Below, one piece after another: positions 20,567-56,573 of a stretch of 64,000 nucleotides of DNA; position 1 is the first letter of the stretch, and each line of letters starts with the position of its first letter. The position numbers and the translations under genes were made by a program. Source of the stretch: Hymenopellis radicata (Eukaryota > Basidiomycota > Agaricomycetes > Agaricales > Physalacriaceae); the NCBI GenBank assembly GCA_015501595.1, contig JADNRX010000190.1:1-64000 (forward strand), in the 5' to 3' direction. Under the pieces are notes generated by a model. That model worked only from the letters and a program-made list of their open reading frames with translations. It was not told where the DNA came from and searched no databases.

Positions 20567-20574
20567 ATTATGCA

Positions 20575-20607
20575 AGGCCCTGGGAAGCTCCCCTATACCG
20601 CCGGCGA
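20575..20607 (+). repeat. Left terminal inverted repeat of the P-like element
   Basis: This 33-bp end is identical to the reverse complement of 26809-26841. It is followed at about 20616 by the subterminal word CTCAAAAGTCCAAA, repeated at about 20650. Confidence 0.9.
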
Positions 20608-20833
20608 CCTCAAGGCCCTCAAAAGTCCAAATTTTTTGGCCTTTTCGAGCCTCAAAAGTCCAAAAATCGCCGGGGTCAGTCACATCACGTGCCAAATGTC
20701 ACACAATTTTAAAACCACTTTTATCCGCGCCACACGTCGTTCTATGGCATTCTTATCATCGTGTTACGTCTATCAGTCGTAGATACATCCATAGACACAA
20801 TGAAATAAGCGAATCTTCTATCAGTATACCTAA

Positions 20834-23800
20834 CTACACCTTAGCCTTTTTGGGCCGTGCCGGTATGCGCAACTTTATGCATGGCACAGTCTTCAGTACA
20901 GTCTGAACTCTCGACAACCGAAGGGCTTTCCAATGGCGAAGTGCATATGGTGCTAACCTCCAATGAGATGAAGTCCCCTCCAGCAATGCTAGGGTCCCAA
21001 GATGATACAACATGTTTTCGGCGGGTGCATGAGTGTATAACTGGGTCGGGCCGCGGGGTCTGCAGGTGAAAAGAGGCTCGTCGCCATCGTCATCATCATT
21101 ATCACTGTCGCCGTCGTTGCTATCCTGAAAAGCATCAAAATATTAATAATTGTCAAGGAATTTGCGAGTGAAAACATACCGCGGTCAGGTGAAGATACAC
21201 CCGCAAGGACAAGTACTTGAGTTCGGCAGCGGACGTAGACACAGGGATAGAATCATAACGACCACTATTACCCTTCTTATAAATATCTATCACCTCGCCG
21301 ATGTACATGCGCTTCACAGTCCGCATAATGACGAAGCTCTTCGGTACGAGAGGTACCATCTGAGAGATGTTCTTGGTACTGATACATTCGAGAGCTAAAG
21401 CGTTCGTGAGCAAGACAGTAATGAAAACAAGAAAATAGGAGAACAGACCCTTCGCTGTTATCAGTTTCACAATTTGGGAAGATGCAGCCTGCCAGCGAAG
21501 TTGACGTGCTGATTTCTGTTGGCCCTGCTGTTGGATTCCTTCATCTCGGGCCTGCGCAATTCGTACAAGATGATTGGCCTCCTTAACGGTCAGCTGAACA
21601 CCAGAGCCGGACGGTGTAGGCGAATTGGTTTCCGAATTCGCCTTCAGTTCCGCTAGTTTGGGGAAGAACTTCGGATTGATCTGTACCACGCGCTCTGAGT
21701 GGGTGGATGTGCCGGCCTGGAGACGTTCACGCAAAGCAACCATCTTCCGAATGGAAATTCTCCCATCTGTATCGAGCATGTCGCTAGAAGTGGTCGACGA
21801 TACTGCCGGCTGTACAGCTTCCAGCATGGACGGTTGCTCGTCGGTGGGTACGGAGGTCTGAGATGACTGAAGGCGATCATCCGGCGAAAGCACATCCTCG
21901 TTATTGTTGTCGCAGTCTTCGCAGAGAGCGGCATAGCGAGCTACATCATGGGTTGACGCAGCTGTGCTTTCGGCCAATGTACCAGAGCTCGATTCCGTCG
22001 AATCATCATCATCGGATGCCTCCTGTAGATCCTCATCCTCCACGTCAGTATCCAATTCATCCCCGTCTGCTGCTACTGCCGCCGCCGCCGCCCGCTTTCG
22101 TGATACCTTGAGTGATGCCAGAGGTGCCAAGGGAATAGGTTGGACGGTAGGAGTGCGAATGTGTAGAACATCACGAAAGACCGCGAGGACTTCGGTATGT
22201 GTGATCCTGACCAGTACATCAATATCAGATGATGAGAGGTTTGCTTTGGGGATGTCCTCAGCACGAAGAGGTTTCGCAGTACCAGTATCCATCATATAGC
22301 CTACGGCAGAATTCCGCTCTGACTTCCTAATCTGGAATTTCCCACTCGCCAAGATGTTAAGACGGACCATCACATGTTGCGAGAACTTGAGGAACTCTGC
22401 AAAAGTGAAATTTGGTAACAGCTGACGCGCCTGCCCAAAGAAGTGTTCGACAAACTCGGTACCAAGGAGCCACGGACAGAAGGGTCGGTTGGGATAACGT
22501 TTAGAATATATGAGGACGAGGATGATGAGTGTATCACATAGTCGATTGAAAATGAGGAAACTCGCGGGAGAAATGAATGATCGCGTTGACGAGTATAGAT
22601 CTGGATATTTCTTCGACATCTCGTCAATGTGAGCCTTCCAGTAATGAAGAAAGAATCGCGCCCGAAGCGCACAGGCAACACGATCCTTGGCGTTCATAAA
22701 TGGATTCAGCCAGGCATCGAAAAGAAGGCCTACAATATTCTTAGTATGTATCAAGTACCGCGATATGCGAAATGTTTACCTAGCATGAAGAGGTAGGTGA
22801 ACAATCCTTCCCATCCAGGTTTTATCGATGTCGCGTCTTCTTCCCCGACGGTGGTTGCTCCAAGGGCTACGCCGTGAAAGATACGGCGCGCGGCCCCGTC
22901 GTCCTGCTTGTCGACATTCTGAACGTCGCGGAGTACGAGTCCTGCAGACTTGGTCTCATACAAGTCGAGGAAAGACTTATTGACCAGACAGCTCGAACCG
23001 AGACTCGCCGTGTGTGTTCCATGCTGTGGTTGGTTTCGAGCGGTTTTCCGGGCATGAGGACAGTCTTGAATTGAAACAACGGGGCCCATATCTGGTATTT
23101 CGGGAACGGAGATCTGTATACCGAATTCCGCATATGCGTAACTGAATGAGGACGGGGCTCCAGATGTGGTATCCTGCAGGTGCTGAGCAAGGAGCTCGCT
23201 CGCTGCGCCATCAGATGCCAGAGAAACTATGTGTATTTTTAGGTTGGCAGCCATCTTAAGCAGCTTCTGGTTAAGCTCGAAGATATACTCCCCGGTGTCT
23301 TTACCGTCGGTTGGAATCAACGCAACGACAATTGGAGGCGTCTGTGGCAGCGGAATCTTGTTTCTTGTTAGTTTTAGGTATGCACAAACAGCGCGAACAT
23401 ACCTGCAGTAAGACAGCTCGGACCTGCTTTGCAAGAGCACGTTCTTCTGAAACTCGATCGGTAATGTTTTCAATGTCGCTCGCGTCCTCGACTACACATT
23501 CATCCATGGGAAGCACTGAGCCGATGATATGACTGCCAGTAGCCGTTGAATAACTCAAACGCGCCTTGACCTTGGTGCAATCTCCGGCAGCAGCAATCGG
23601 GCCGTCATATCCAATGCGGTCCATGTACCTGCGCACACGCGCAACATTCTCGTAGATGAGATACGGATTCTGCAGAGCATCGGCAGAGTTGGTAACGAGA
23701 TATCTGACAATTTATGAGATGAGAAACAGACAGTAAACATCGCAGGTACACACCGCAGGTGCCTCAACGTAGGTCCTTCGATATGACTACGCAGAAGTTC

Positions 23801-26488
23801 ATACTGCTTACGCGAGTTTGCACCAAATCCACGCAGTAATACCATGTAATTCAGGTATGATTCGGGATAACGAATTCCGAACTTGAGCTTTCCGTTCGGA
23901 GAGGTACTCCGTTTGAGCTTGTCGACAAAGACTTGGCATATAACACTGAACGTGTCGTGATCGGCAAGGCGACCTTTAGCGGCATGCTGGTAGAGTTCTA
24001 AGAAGAACTTGTACGAGTTGTCTTCCTTTGCAATGCGATGCAGATTGAAGAGGACATCATCTTCGAATATCGAAAGAGCCTTCAGCGAATCAAATCCGGG
24101 GAGAGCGGACTTCCCGGTGAAGCGTGTGCGCTGCGCCAATATTTGACGTTGCTCATCATCAGGTTTTGCCAATTCCTTGTCCTTCTATAAAACACGTCAA
24201 TTCTGGGGTAGTGCAGATGGATTTCAACGTACTCGGTAGACGGCGTTCTTGAACGCCTTGTCTTTCGTGACTAAATGACATTGGTCACAACGACTGTTTT
24301 GATTTGTTGTCACCCCTTCGCATCTTGGAGATTTGATGAACCGGTTTAGAAAATCTACTTCCCACCGCACCCACGGTCGCAGTGCTTGCTCAACCCGCTC
24401 TCTTTCCCACCGAGTCCACTCCTCCGTTTTCACCCTCACGTTTCCGCTTGACGGTACACTCTGAACATCACTCCCAACTCCTCGTAGTCGTCCATCACCA
24501 TTCCCTTTCTTCATATCAGGGAATGGCTTCCACGGCAACAGCCTACGGGCGACTCGAGCTTCAAACTCTTGCGAAATCCCTCCTAAGGATCGCGTCGGTG
24601 TGCGTTCGATGTATGCATCGTATCGCTTCCCATTCAGGTGTGTGCATGGTGTCTTCACTGCTGGTTGGACTTCGTTGGTGATGGAGCCTTTTTCGAATAT
24701 GTTGGCAACCGATGGCGTCTATCATGGCGTTCATTCAGACTCACTCTCGCTTCATGAACGGGGTACTTACTGCTGCGAATTTCTTTAGCATGTAAGTCTT
24801 GGTGCCGATTTCTGGAACCGGCGTAACACTGGGGACGACGTCTGGGCCAGAACCCGCTTTCAACGAGGCCTTGACTGGGAAGAACGAGTGAAGAGCGGAT
24901 ACACCTTTAGGTGCCTAGAGGTGTCAATCAGATGGCATGTGCGTAAACTTACACCTTCGACACGTACCTTCGCAAACTTAGACTTTGCTCCGATAGCGAC
25001 GCGCTTCGTCGACACACCGGTTATCTGGGGACACGACGCAAGGTGGGACTTCCAGTGCTTCATGTCGTACTTCCGCTTATCGTCCAATTTTATTGCCTTA
25101 TTGCAGCCCTTGCACATTACTTTGTCTTCCGTGAAACTCTTTACCCAAGGGTCCTCTTCGAGCCACTTCTTTCGGTCCTCTTCATTCTGGTACCCGGAGC
25201 GGTCACCCTTTACTGCTTTTCGCTTTTTTGGTGGTTGCTCGTCATCCGTAGCGTCGGGGTCTTCATCGTCGGAACGTTTGTGTTTACTGTAAATGGTGAG
25301 TGTAATATTCGATTATCAGGGCTTGGCTTACCTTCTTTTCGAAGGTACATTGTTATGCTCTTTCGGTCCATTGCTTTGTCCCGCCGGGAAGCGGGCATCC
25401 TTGGCTTTCTTAACTGGGCCTGGTGGCAGTTGCTTCTCGACATTTTGTGCTGGGCTCTCGTGCGGGATCGAGCCACGCAGGTCAGATAGGGAATGGATGT
25501 GATCGAGGAGGGCGGGCGTAGGTGGCTCAGTCTCCATACGTGTGGCAGGCGCGACAGATGGTCCATCCACAATTTCGAATCCGTCACTGTCATCTTCATT
25601 GCTTTGGACGGCGTTGCGTGGGCGGATTCGGGCAATTCTGGAGTGTCGGTAAGTTGCGGCAATAACGGTACTGAACAAGCCCTACTTACGGGATACCCAA
25701 GAGAACTTCCAGGATTTTTGACCGCATTTCTTCCTTTCGGTCATCCTCGGCATCTTCAACTGGACGACCCTCTTTGACCATCCACAGACCCATCATGGTG
25801 AAGATGCCGCATGACCATGCATCTACTTGGCGTTGGCTTTCACGCGGTGAGAGCACTTCGAGAGGCTTCCATTCGGACCATTGATGCCTCTGTTTTCCTA
25901 GAATCGCCATGATCGCGTCAATTGCGTCAAGCATCATCTAGACAACACTTCAGTGGTGACCGTGGGCTTTCCTGTATCGACTCACCGGCTCTGCCCAGAA
26001 TGCAGATCCGAGCTCGGGGATGCTGTCGAAAATGTAGGCTTGTTGGTCTATGAAATCAACCCAGCCGAGAACCCAGTGGTATGGTTCATGCTCTGAGTAA
26101 AGTGGGAAGAACCAACGGTTGTAGGTTTCCAATTTTGAAAGGGTATCACCGCTCTCGAAAGAAGGTAAGTCGTGTGTAACACCAGCATCGAATATGGACG
26201 TACTACAGCTCGAATATGATCAAGGATGGTCCCATGATATTTTCCTTCTGTGAGGGTACCCCGTACAAGGGGCGGCAGATAACTAGAGAAAACACACCAG
26301 TCGGAGGTGACTGCAGAATTTTCTTCAGCTAAATTCTGCACGGTGGCAGCAAATGTGTTGATAAGTAGACCAGGGATTCTTTCCCCGCCAACAATGAGAG
26401 GTTCGAAATCCTCGTAGATGAGGTCGAATCCGCGTACATTGCGGATTTCGACTTTTACTGTGTCCGCGAGGGAGAGACGCGCCGTCAT
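20834..26488 (-). CDS. Ulp1-like protease / zinc finger / DDE transposase, one gene
   Basis: ATG at 26488, TAG at 20836-20834. In order: a Ulp1 (C48) domain with HWVLGWVDF (His), YIFDSIPELG (Asp) and QVDAWSCGIFTM (Cys); a charged linker (DDSDGFEIVDG, then PPKKRKAVKGDRS); a zinc finger CKGCNKAIKLD..WKSHLASC; a GVSALHSFFPVKA linker; a long helical part; AAGDCTKVKARLSYST; VALIPTDGKDTGEYI; VSLASDGAASEL; QDCPHARKTARN; and FVEHFFGQARQLLPNFTF. An acidic tail (SDNDDDDGDE) and basic end PARPKKAKV follow. Junctions checked keep phase (IP/IARIRPRN, PSKR/SKHKRS, LLQ/IPLPQ, TA/DSNDGD), so protease and transposase read as one chain. The DDE part matches a large Agaricomycete transposase family with P/THAP9-like order. 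The protease could process the protein or remove SUMO from host targets; that is inference. No frame break was seen. Two separate transcripts remain possible. Confidence 0.82.
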
Positions 26489-26808
26489 TGGTACCGAGAG
26501 ATCGCGTCGTTCGTGTTGGAGAGAAAATGGAAAATTGTTCAGATCGGATCATGCCGAGACGTGCTCGGTGTTATACAGCAACGCCGACAGCTGGATTCGA
26601 ACGTGTACGTGAAAAAAATGCATTCTTTGAAGTACCACGAAGGCATCAAACCCACTGGACTATATACATGCACTTGGAGGGGGTCTCCAAGTACCCAGCT
26701 ACCCTCTGAAAAGTCCAAATTCTCGCCGAACCTCAGCCCAAATTTCGCTCAAAAGTCCAAATTTTCGCCGGGGTTTTGGTCGATTTTGAGCCCTCAAAAG
26801 TCCAAAAA

Positions 26809-26841
26809 TCGCCGGCGGTATAGGGGAGCTTCCCAGGGCCT
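26809..26841 (-). repeat. Right terminal inverted repeat of the P-like element
   Basis: Exact mirror of 20575-20607. Three AAAAGTCCAAA words lie inside it between about 26708 and 26808. Confidence 0.9.
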
Positions 26842-29800
26842 ATTATGCAATTGCGTCAACATTACGAGTACACAGTGACAGGTAAGCCGTGCCGTGTCCC
26901 TCTTGTAGGGCTCTCCACCGTACCGTATACGGTTACAATGTTACAAGATTGATTCCGCCTACGCTAATTAAATAGCTAAGGTACTAGTACCCCGACGGAC
27001 CGTATATAGTGAATAATGACAAGTGAATGGCGACGCAGACCACGGGTGCCTCAAAACCCTGCGGGGAAAACCTCTGTGAGGACAAAACCCACGTCAGGGA
27101 AAGCTACCGGGTTATCGGTGAGAACGGTAAACATGAAAAGTCAGTTGCTTGCACGGAAACGACGTGCGGATATGCCCTTGGATGTGGCAACCCGACGCGT
27201 GTAATCGCCCCAGATGCGTCCGGCAAGTCGAACAAAGGTAATGTGCCAAGAAGAGGAAATATTTCGAAGGACCCTGTCCCGTAGAATGCCACTGGAAAAA
27301 GCATCACGAGGTATGAGCCCATCAAGAGGAGGAACATGGCCTAAATAAAACTGGGTCAATGCAAGAGGCCAGATGACAGGATTGTCAAGGAAGAGGGACT
27401 CAGCCGCATGTTTAAGCAAGGGAAAGTTGGACACTTTGGAGTCCTTGTCGCCGGTCTTGATTGCATTCTCGGTTACCCGCTCAACATCCTTCAGCGCATC
27501 CGCGCGGTATGTCGAGAATTGAGGGCAACACACAAATGTGTGATGCATGTCCTCGATTGCGATGCAACCAAAGCGACACAGATTTGACGCTAGATAGCTA
27601 CGAGAATGCATTGTTTCGGCATTCGGCAGTTGACCCGATCTTGCGTACAGCTGTACCGCCGCCGAGTATGCTGAAACTGCGTGAGTGTATGGAAAGGAAG
27701 GAGGAGGACGCTTATCGTATAGCCAAGTGGCCATCCGATGCTTGTGTCCATATCCGAACTCGCGGGACGTTCGACGAGCGAAGATGGAGGTGAGATAAGT
27801 TTTGATGTCAGACTCGATCCAGCCATGATCATCAGAGAAGAACGTGTAGTCGTTCATGAAGAAGGTTGGTTCGGGAGCGATAGGGAGCCGAGTCGAAACA
27901 GCATGAGAGCCAGATGCGTAGTGATCAGCCTCATTGTTGAGGCGCGACTCTATAGAATCTCCACCAGTATGAGCTTTAGTATACTCAAGATGCATATGCC
28001 GGTTTCGTTGCAGAATAGACAATAGCCACCGATAGTATGAGCGCCCAGGTAAGTTTCGGAGACGCGGTTGTATATCTACAACCGTCTGAGAGTCGTCAAC
28101 AAGTCGAACCGAGTTCATGTGATCTGTAAGTAGTCGATGACGGCCCATGTTGTCTATGTCGGTAGCCATCAGCGAGTCCATGATCTGAGCGAATACCTCT
28201 GCATGCAGGATTGACTTAGCGGTACCAGCGACGCGCATGACAAGAGTCCGAGGTCCTGTAACCGCCGCAATGAGAGTTTTTGGGTCAAGAAGTCCCGCTG
28301 ATGCCGGACTTGCTGATCCGTCAGATGCCCACATCGTGACATCACTCTCTTGAGACTTGACCTTCGACGCCGACATCTGCGAAGTCGCCGCGAGCCAGCG
28401 GATCCAGCTTTCAGCCGCTACACGACGTTCCTCCCGAGGCCTCACCAAATCCTCTGATCCGATATAGAACCATGACAGCGGGACATTTTCGAAGATGTCG
28501 ACCATCCTCTGCCAGGCCACGGATGCACCAAGATCAGTCGCACGATGAGTAGGGAACGGTGGGTCTGTGCGTGGAGAGAAGGTGCGAGCATTCCATTCAC
28601 CAGCATGACGGAGTAAACTCACCCCCTTTTTTCGCAGAGACAACCAAACACGTCCGTGCGGTACGTCCTTCCCGTGTGCACGACATACTGCCGACACATG
28701 CGTCAAACTCATATCTCCACGCAGGACATGACTCTGGTCCGTCGACCGCAGGCCCAACTTCACGCCGGAACTTCCCATCGCCTGTTGGGCTGAGATCCAG
28801 GCCATTGGAAGACGCCCACGATAACGCGAGAACCCACGACTAAGCCCGGCACCGTCAAGTGGACTGGCGCAGCCGTTAATCGAGCACTGCCAGTCAGCAA
28901 GGGTTATTGGTGTACGCAGAGCGAATTTAGGCATCTTAAACTCGTCAATAAAGCATTTCAGTTCGTTAAAGCGTGCAGTGGGATCGTCAACCTTAGCGCG
29001 CAGAAATTCGAGCTCATCCTTGACCACCGGCACAGCGTGAAGAGTTATCGTCATCGGGCTAACACTGGCTCGGTTCGTGATGGAGGGCATATAAATTGTG
29101 TCGGGTATCTCGCGTCGTAGTCCCAGTGCGTAAGCTTCAGTTTTCTTCCATTGAGTAAGCCATCCGTATGCGAACTGAAAGCGCTCCATAGCCAGGGTGA
29201 AGTACATGAGGCCAGCTTCGTCGCGTGCAAAGAGGTAGGAGTTGTCCATCGCTTCAGCCATCGATATTCTGAGCTCAGTTTCATCATTAGGAAGATGCAA
29301 ATCACCGCGTTCTGCATTCGAAGATCGTAGAAGGAGACTGCCCTCACTGTCAGTAGCCAAATCAGAGAGCCAGCGATGTCCAAGACTAGTCGTCAGCGTC
29401 GACTTGAGCGGAGAAAGAGGACCACCCTGTTTAGTTACCCCAGAGATGAATATTGGGTCAGTCATGCCGTGTGCCGTCCGTATCGAGCATTTAACATTGT
29501 CCTGAGCAGCACGGTCGAGTTCGATAATCGAGGCGGGCAATCCGTAGGCAGTGATAGCATCGTGGAATCCCTGAGGCGCGAGGTAGTCAAAGCCCTTCAT
29601 CTGGTCGCGCTTGAGACACCAGACTTCGGTTTTGTGACGTTGAGCCCAAGTCTTAATGCCCGAGAGGAAGCTAATGAGATCTCTTGCCTGTACACCCTGC
29701 TGTGTCGCGACTTGCGTCTCCGGGATGATACTGAGTCGAGCAACATAGGGAGTTAGGCAGTAGTTTAGCCAGGTCATCGGTGAGTTCGCGAGAAAATTTG

Positions 29801-29912: not shown

Positions 29913-31419
29913 CACCGCCAAGTTGGGATGACCTTTGGTAGACGTTTTGGGAAAGATGTTGTGCCATCATTTCGGCAATGTTGTCAGATCTCGACTAAAT
30001 GTTGTCAGACCTCAACTAATCGAATCAATTAACCTCAATTGAGTGTGAGGTTGCGGCAACGTTTCCTACAACATCTGGCTAATGCTCCTTTCAATCATGT
30101 CAGGAGCTTCTCTAGCAGATTCTTCATTTTTGTCATACAGGTGGTTTGGATTGAAAAAAGCTGGCATTGTCATTCCACTAAATAGAGGGTACATGTACTA
30201 TAATACTGCAAATGCGGGAGATACGGGTCGTCGCCGCCGCCGTTGCTGTCGTGAAAATCAGAATCGTGGTCGTCGCGGTCGAGGTGCTCATCACGGCCGC
30301 GGTCCTCGTCAATGTCGCGGCTTGTCGACATCCTCCTCCATGTCGCTATCCTCATCCTCGTCCTCAACCTCATTGATTGCCATCCTTGCCCATGTTCTGA
30401 CCTCGTCCATGGTCTCCTCCTTGTCAACGTCGTCGTTATTGTGGTCCTCGCCAATAAGTCCCATTTGCTTGTGGTCCGGTGTGCAGTCGCGGTCCTCGTC
30501 CCCAATCGCGGTCCTCGTCCAACAGTCGCAGTCCTCGTCCAACAGTCGCAGTCCTCGTCCAACAGTTGCAGTCTTCGTCCAACAGTCGCGGTCCTCGTCC
30601 ACGTCCAACAGTCGCGGTCCTCGTCCACGTCCAACAGTCGCGGTCCTCGTCCACGTCCAACAGTCGCAGTCCTCGTCTTGATTGGGTTCTCATCGGGTCG
30701 TTATGCTCGTCCTGTGCTCCTCATCCACAGTCGCGGTCCTCGTCCACAGTCATGGTCCTCGTCCACAGTCGCGGTCCTCGTCCACAGTCGCGGTCCTCGT
30801 CCTGATTGGGTCCTGATTGGGTCGTTACGCTCGTCCTGTGCTGGTTGTTCATTCGCGTGCAGTCATCGTCCCTCGTGGATAAGAGCCGTTGTAAAGGGCT
30901 CCGAGTCGTCCTGACGTGTGGCTCTTCTAATGCCTTGCGGGCGACCATCGAGAGGACTTGCGGTTGGGCCAGTGGAAGTTGGCCAGCTGGTGCAGGTGGA
31001 AGGGAAGGAGGAAGGGACATTGCCCGATCGGGACTTTTGGTTCGGTTTCGAAATTGATGCGGAGTTTGAATGGACTTGGGTGATTTCTTATACTGTAACT
31101 TCGGCTCATGGAAATTCGTTTGCCTGGTAGCTTCCTGCAATTGCCGGGCGACTAAACATGGATGAGATAGCATTTGGAAGAATAACTTTGTAATAAATAC
31201 TATATTATAATGCAAAATAGCACAAATATGCACAACAGTCTATGAGGTTACCCACCACGTATTTCCCAATCTCCCACCAGATGTTTTGAAAAGGTTGACT
31301 TGGAACATTGGGCGGCAACATTGCCGCAACATCCGGCGCACTGTTTCCGTGCGATCAACTTTGATCTCAATCAACTTCAGCGATCAATCTCACGGCAAGG
31401 TCAGGACAGTTTGGTGGTG
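29913..31419. mobile_element. TA-flanked non-autonomous DNA element, 1507 bp, inside the LINE
   Basis: The insertion point is set by the LINE frame: codons for LHDY and IVETARF join when 29913-31419 and one TA are removed. The ends are imperfect inverted repeats, CACCGCCAA..TGACCTT on the left and its mirror of CACCACCAA..TGACCTT on the right. TA lies on both sides (29911-29912, 31420-31421). Subterminal words GCAACAT/ATGTTGC recur at both ends. The centre is a GC-rich minisatellite with no real gene. Tc1/mariner is the simplest class; a CACTA-type element with a 2-bp duplication is possible. Confidence 0.8.
30478..30830. repeat. Minisatellite, about 20-bp unit
   Basis: Units close to GTCGCGGTCCTCGTCCAACA follow one another, with variants CGTCCACAGTC and CGTCCACGTCC. 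Because the unit length and the lack of stops keep several frames open, long open frames exist on both strands here, but they encode only repeated GPRP/DEDRD-type peptides and are not called as genes. Confidence 0.85.

Positions 31420-56529: not shown

Positions 56530-56573
<44 letters not shown>
56530..56573 (+). repeat. Homopolymer run of 44 C
   Basis: An uninterrupted C tract lies between ATTCTGTTAA and AACCCGGTCACTTG. The equivalent place in copy A1 (about 20118) reads ATTCTGTGACCACTTG without a run. The tract could be a real expansion or an assembly artefact. Confidence 0.85.

What the first reader, a model, noticed from the sequence alone, without database searches (positions are those of the whole stretch)
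20575..26841. A P-like transposon whose single gene joins a Ulp1 protease to a DDE transposase
Seen: perfect 33-bp inverted ends, an 8-bp duplication, subterminal repeats and one continuous minus-strand gene from 26488 to 20834. The Ulp1 triad (HWVLGW, FDS, WSCG) is followed in phase over short introns by a zinc finger and then the transposase core. Known: Ulp1 proteases are found near or inside several eukaryotic DNA transposons, but a direct fusion to a P/THAP9-like core inside clean element ends is not something I know to be described. Inference: the protease may cleave the fusion or strip SUMO from host proteins to aid transposition.
Basis: partly seen in the sequence, partly recalled or inferred. 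Interest (0 to 1): 0.8.

Follow-up and report, generated by a model that had tools for sequence, protein, structure and literature searches.

The report
Mushroom P-type transposon with built-in SUMO protease
A recently inserted jumping gene in a mushroom genome encodes one predicted protein that joins a SUMO-cutting-type protease to a P-element-type transposase, and the same joined layout recurs in many mushroom genomes, so it looks like a lasting design rather than an accident.

The parts
20567..20574 (.). target site duplication, left copy (ATTATGCA)
   Evidence: 24 of 26 checked copies with both ends have a perfect 8-bp duplication
26842..26849 (.). target site duplication, right copy (ATTATGCA)
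20575..20607 (+). terminal inverted repeat, 33 bp, gene 3' side
   Evidence: 100% complementary to 26809-26841
26809..26841 (-). terminal inverted repeat, 33 bp, gene 5' side
20617..20673 (+). two subterminal direct repeats (CTCAAAAGTCCAAA...), candidate transposase binding sites
   Evidence: families D1/D2; positions +47 and +80
26706..26815 (+). three subterminal repeats in the same (direct) orientation as the left pair
   Evidence: D1/D2; positions -132, -90, -45
20834..26488 (-). single predicted gene, 12 exons, 1701 aa: Ulp1 - basic linker - zinc-finger-like motif - P-type transposase - acidic region - C-terminal domain
   Evidence: public model P0001
25690..26488 (-). Ulp1/SENP (Peptidase C48) domain, exons 1-3; H121 at 26078-26076, D138 at 26027-26025, Q188 at 25829-25827, C194 at 25811-25809
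   Evidence: PF02902 E 1.9e-7; SENP2 profile match E 5.1e-13; coordinates
25031..25114 (-). zinc-finger-like motif C-x2-C-x18-H-x5-C (not THAP order)
   Evidence: a similar motif between Ulp1 and core in 81 of 97 Ulp1 homologues, shuffled control 45 of 1940
22446..24718 (-). P-type transposase core (approximate limits); D1 D837 (23582-23580), D2 D945 (23212-23210), E E1183 (22448-22446); helical insertion between D2 and E
   Evidence: fold transferred from a homologue model by alignment
22883..23065 (-). the two most conserved motifs of the family, D-x2-H-x2-KT-x2-N and DKQDDGAARR, between D2 and E
   Evidence: invariant or nearly invariant columns; coordinates
20834..21400 (-). C-terminal beta-rich domain of unknown fold, shared with models that lack Ulp1 (approximate limits)
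   Evidence: in 83 of 86 homologues with 400 or more aa after the core; model of homologue P0135

Best explanation
It is a recently inserted cut-and-paste DNA transposon of the P superfamily (fungal branch) whose transposase carries a built-in Ulp1/SENP-type SUMO protease at its N terminus, where animal P elements have a THAP domain, followed by a zinc-finger-like motif. Shown by sequence or model: ends, duplication, one open gene, P-type fold, conserved protease tetrad, conserved fusion. Inferred: the protein enters the nucleus (basic linker), binds the direct subterminal repeats, excises and reinserts the element by a P-type DDE reaction, and the tethered protease removes SUMO from proteins at the element's ends or target (silencing factors, repair factors or the transposase itself), so that transposition is less blocked.
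Against: No transcript, protein or activity data. Substrate and SUMO specificity are untested; Ulp1-like folds can also cut ubiquitin, NEDD8 or peptides (recalled; the profile also reaches OtDUB and ChlaDub2 weakly). Rust and Glomeromycota relatives show no Ulp1, so it may not be needed for P-type transposition as such. Sister element L043 in the same genome has a broken Ulp1. The window family has only one full-length copy among the matches listed. Foldseek alone gave the second model (P0135) no match at E <= 0.001.
Confidence: 0.55

Rival explanations
1. The Ulp1 domain is a processing protease that cuts the fusion itself, releasing mature transposase, as in a polyprotein.
For: Protease and transposase lie on one chain, joined by a long stretch (median Ulp1-to-core distance 273 aa over 97 proteins).
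Against: The family matches SENP/Ulp1 enzymes, which cut after di-glycine (recalled); only 27 of 81 linkers up to the zinc finger contain GG, and P0001's has none. A GG after the zinc finger is common, but also in models without Ulp1, such as P0082, P0124 and P0126.
Confidence: 0.12
2. The protease is a captured passenger with no role in transposition.
For: Captured gene pieces are common in plant transposons, and Ulp1 pieces occur in MULE and CACTA elements (passages of PMC2528002 and PMC8978399). One copy, L043, has a broken Ulp1.
Against: Tetrad intact in 87 of 89; presence in deep clades; always N-terminal to the core; co-divergence with the core.
Confidence: 0.13
3. Two neighbouring genes inside one transposon, wrongly merged by gene callers.
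For: No cDNA was available; the public model and mine differ in the linker introns.
Against: No stop between the domains after splicing of short GT-AG introns; 97 deposited homologues, from many annotated genomes but several from the same species, show the same merged order.
Confidence: 0.04
4. The transposase belongs to another 8-bp-duplication superfamily (hAT, Zisupton/KDZ).
For: hAT usually and Zisupton also make 8-bp duplications (PMC12730594).
Confidence: 0.03

Closest known systems
P elements of rust fungi (Repbase P-1_PSt, P-1_MLP, P-2_MLP)
   Same: Fungal P-superfamily DNA transposons with 8-bp duplications (PMC3164196 section 8). Two Melampsora larici-populina proteins, P0087 and P0138, are homologues of the window core and may be these elements (identity with the Repbase entries not tested).
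   Different: P0087 and P0138 show no Ulp1 in the profile search, though they have only 185 and 338 aa upstream; the paper section mentions no protease.
Drosophila P element and animal THAP9
   Same: P-type transposase fold, 8-bp duplication, 31-bp (here 33-bp) perfect inverted repeats, internal sites near the ends (P facts from passages of PMC7776569); D2-E spacing 238 aa here, 228 from the published residue numbers.
   Different: No THAP domain detected; Ulp1 and a different zinc-finger-like motif instead; a beta-rich C-terminal domain; about 6.3 kb instead of 2.9 kb; GTP use unknown; D1-D2 spacing 108 against 73.
Ginger1 transposons
   Same: Transposase and Ulp1 (or OTU) in one protein (passages of PMC2836005).
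   Different: Gypsy-integrase-type core, protease at the C terminus; the table seen lists animals.
CACTA-ULP and Kaonashi MULE elements of plants
   Same: Ulp1 domain inside a cut-and-paste element; rice proteins with Tnp2 plus ULP1 domains (passages of PMC2528002).
   Different: CACTA or Mutator transposase; in KI-MULEs the ULP domain is in reverse orientation.
Crypton elements with C48 peptidase
   Same: Ulp1-family peptidase encoded by oomycete CryptonF and some CryptonS elements (passages of PMC3212892).
   Different: Tyrosine recombinase, not DDE.

Membership tests
P superfamily of DNA transposons | P-type transposase: RNase H-like DDE core with helical insertion domain | tested here: met
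P superfamily of DNA transposons | 8-bp target site duplication | tested here: met
   Window ATTATGCA on both sides; 24 of 26 checked copies perfect, the others 5/8 and 6/8
P superfamily of DNA transposons | terminal inverted repeats with subterminal sites | tested here: met
   33-bp repeats; 2+3 subterminal direct repeats. Binding by the transposase not tested.
P superfamily of DNA transposons | P-element-type HTH (PF12017) | tested here: inconclusive
   Homologue P0126 passes the cut-off; no hit in the window protein
P superfamily of DNA transposons | GTP-binding insertion domain | tested here: inconclusive
   The insertion lies inside the aligned range; GTP-contact residues could not be matched residue by residue
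Animal P element / THAP9 subfamily | N-terminal THAP zinc finger | tested here: not met
   No THAP family among Pfam hits at E up to 5; the finger-like motif has C-x2-C-x18-H-x5-C order (the THAP order is recalled). So it is filed in the superfamily, not in this subfamily.
Peptidase C48 (Ulp1/SENP) | PF02902 above curated cut-off | tested here: met
   31.6 bits against cut-off 20.7
Peptidase C48 (Ulp1/SENP) | catalytic His-Asp-Cys with oxyanion Gln | tested here: met
   H121, D138, Q188, C194; intact (D or N) in 87 of 89 homologues with all four columns
Peptidase C48 (Ulp1/SENP) | SUMO isopeptidase activity | not testable with these tools
   needs an enzyme assay
Kyakuja (KDZ) | 7-bp duplication, no TIRs | tested here: not met
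   8-bp duplication and 33-bp TIRs here; Kyakuja features from PMC12730594
Ginger1 | Gypsy-integrase-like transposase with C-terminal Ulp1/OTU | tested here: not met
   P-type core, Ulp1 N-terminal

The most novel reading that the evidence does not exclude
Mushroom P-superfamily elements made their transposase a tethered SUMO protease: the element carries its own deSUMOylase to its ends and targets, stripping SUMO from silencing or repair proteins in cis, and this counter-defence has been kept over deep divergence within Agaricomycetes.
Probability: 0.35. Interest if true: 0.7.

Novelty: new variant of a known kind. Interest (0 to 1): 0.5.

Why it matters
Ulp1-type proteases turn up in several unrelated transposons (Ginger1, CACTA, MULE, Crypton), and as far as I know their role there is unproven. 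Here the protease is fused in phase to a transposase of the P superfamily, a biochemically and structurally well-studied type, in elements that moved recently (identical ends; a 99.9% identical sister pair at different sites) and with a conserved catalytic tetrad. One point change of the cysteine would test directly whether a transposon-borne SUMO protease helps transposition. It also extends the fungal P elements reported from rusts to a large, widely distributed family in mushrooms.

Tried and rejected
Rejected: hAT or KDZ assignment (gap in Z; no such Pfam family, although an absent hit is weak evidence). A conserved self-cleavage di-glycine between Ulp1 and finger (27 of 81; an earlier count of 65 of 97 took the whole stretch up to the core and could include the GG that follows the finger). 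Profile search of PDB sequences: the 16 hits at E <= 0.001 are all Ulp1-like proteases; nothing for the transposase. Pfam on single exons named no transposase, nor did Pfam on seven distant relatives. A look at an active-transposon paper of another mushroom (PMC9674265, passages) gave hAT, Mariner and LINE families in the passages shown and nothing on this family.

Left open: whether Ulp1 was gained once or more often. The quick tree (81 of 146 rows) puts Glomeromycota without Ulp1 beside the window's clade and flags long branches; Ulp1 of the two clades is only 15% identical on average (profile comparison probability 92.8%, E 3.9e-7). The C-terminal domain has no fold assigned (it was barely tested there). 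Clade B Ulp1 was not searched against PDB separately.

Not achieved: an empty-site search with the window's left flank and a count of all Ulp1 genes of the genome, because the whole-genome tool was busy. I had no nucleotide data of other mushrooms, so no dN/dS.

Full report
Observation. Window 20575-26841 (6267 bp) is bounded by perfect 33-bp inverted repeats and flanked on both sides by ATTATGCA. The ends carry five forward copies of a repeat with core AAAAGTCCAAA, two at one end (+47, +80) and three at the other (-132, -90, -45), all in the same direction; with one mismatch allowed the core occurs nowhere in the other 57,733 bp of the window. Two reverse matches (+61, -395) also exist inside the element.

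Gene. On the minus strand the reading frame from ATG 26488 to stop 20834 is open through 11 introns (45-55 nt in the model used), giving 1701 aa. The donors were picked by eye and 64 acceptor combinations remain open, so exact junctions are uncertain, above all in the linker. The deposited protein BDZ89DRAFT_1203567 (P0001, 1599 aa, contig of 106,054 bases, equal to the window's contig) is also a single protein with PF02902; compared with mine it splices the linker differently, skips exon 6 and has one more intron in the long C-terminal exon. The genome is therefore most likely Hymenopellis radicata (Agaricales, Physalacriaceae).

Protease. Pfam PF02902 scores 31.6 bits against a cut-off of 20.7. 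A profile of 39 homologues finds SENP2 at E 5.1e-13, SENP1 and yeast Ulp1 (1euv, E 3.1e-10) in PDB. Residues H121, D138, Q188 and C194 form the tetrad. In 97 homologues with the domain, 89 have all four columns and 87 of these keep H, D or N, Q and C (exceptions P0055 and P0053).

The fusion is general. Three searches, each scoring only about 7,990 candidates that share most words, gave 146 homologues, by the names shown fungal and mostly Agaricomycetes (P0077 has no name; I did not look up each species). 97 of 146 carry Ulp1 by iterated profile search, always before the core (97 of 97). Of 97 with at least 350 residues upstream of the core 95 have it (exceptions P0099, P0146); of 49 with less, 2 do. 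So most absences can be short or cut gene models; I could not see their DNA. Relatives from Rhizophagus (such as P0128, 220 residues upstream) and Melampsora (P0087, 185; P0138, 338) show none, with the same caveat. Ulp1 and core distances correlate across 76 proteins (rho 0.853), within the window's clade (49; 0.685) and within clade B (25; 0.885), each p 0.001 by 999 permutations.

Copies in the genome. The whole-genome search lists 114 DNA matches, with only the window copy full length (lower bound). From that list I fetched 36 places and used one more (L049). Of 38 sequences scanned, window included, 26 have both ends at the threshold used: 24 with a perfect 8-bp duplication, L054 5/8, L061 6/8 (the script printed 23 because it took a wrong left end for L070). 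L068 and L069 read the same duplication on opposite strands and may be one site on two contigs. Of the other 25 copies with both ends, 13 show the subterminal repeats at matching places and 12 show none. Some copies keep a piece of the first Ulp1 exon (C907, C558, C696), others the 3' end of the gene (C84, C522), which places Ulp1 at the 5' end of the mobile unit.

Sister family. I fetched nine further loci with distant core matches (L038-L046; L039 and L046 overlap). Ulp1 was matched in seven (L038-L043, L046), only its C-terminal part in L038 and L040, and not in L044 and L045, where only parts of the core matched. Four are complete elements with ends AGGACCC...GGGTCCT, 6.5-6.9 kb and a perfect 8-bp duplication: L042, L043, L039, L046; their core is 25-33% identical to P0001 in translated matches. 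For L038, L040, L041, L044 and L045 I recognised no such ends. L039 and L046 are 99.9% identical over about 6.55 kb, lie 64 bp apart on C524, and have different duplications (AGTTCGGT, AGTATTGG), which indicates a recent, perhaps local, jump; their Ulp1 residues are intact by eye, while L043's Ulp1 is broken.

Layout. Between Ulp1 and core, 81 of 97 proteins have a finger-like motif C-x(1,4)-C...H...C/H (shuffled control 45 of 1940) and 67 of those 81 linkers have a basic, NLS-like stretch. This is not the THAP order (recalled), and no THAP family was among the Pfam hits. A C-terminal beta-rich domain occurs in 83 of 86 homologues with 400 or more residues after the core, with or without Ulp1.

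Mechanism. Shown by sequence or model: mobility, P-type fold, conserved protease. Inferred: P-type excision and integration; protease tethered to the transposase acting on SUMO-conjugates near the element. A link of Ulp1 and OTU domains to transposition or repair was already proposed in the Ginger paper (passage). I put 0.93 on the anatomy and superfamily, about 0.55 on the anatomy together with a deSUMOylation role. Self-processing is less likely, for want of a conserved di-glycine (27 of 81; none in P0001's linker).

Literature. P elements in Dikarya were reported from rusts in 2011 with 8-bp duplications (PMC3164196, section 8 read). Ulp1 with transposase or recombinase: Ginger1 (PMC2836005, passages), CACTA (PMC2528002, passages; PMC8978399, passages), Crypton (PMC3212892, passages). 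PMC12730594 (abstract, passages and the first of three parts of the Results) treats another accessory enzyme in fungal transposons and does not use the word protease. P element facts are from passages of PMC7776569. Ten library searches listed no paper that I recognised as describing Ulp1 on a P-superfamily transposase; their lists were capped and I opened only eight papers, those named and PMC9674265. Repbase and most subscription journals were not searchable, so priority is not established. Verdict: new variant of a known kind.

Noticed in passing
L039 495-7042 and L046 607-7152 (C524): Two 99.9% identical sister elements 64 bp apart with different 8-bp duplications: a likely recent local transposition.
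   Followed up: partly
L071 101-3947 (C519): A 3.85-kb copy with the family's ends and a perfect 8-bp duplication; in the search only its ends matched the window element, so the interior may be captured or nested DNA.
   Followed up: no
L058-L067, L070, L049: Copies with the same ends (8-bp duplications perfect in 11 of these 12, 6/8 in L061) but without the AAAAGTCCAAA repeats: a second subterminal type that may use the same or another transposase.
   Followed up: no
homologues P0035, P0083, P0086, P0146: Gene models that carry acetyltransferase, CHAT, Pre-SET or tigger-type domains (by precomputed Pfam accessions and names, partly recalled) beside this transposase; real fusions or merged models is not known.
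   Followed up: no
L033-L037 (C1184, C963, C1266, C607): Weak 30-38% matches to the zinc-finger region alone, suggesting that the finger is shared with other gene families of this genome.
   Followed up: no
window 56530-56573: Run of 44 C.
   Followed up: no
window 30484-30802: Imperfect 19-26-bp tandem repeat array.
   Followed up: no
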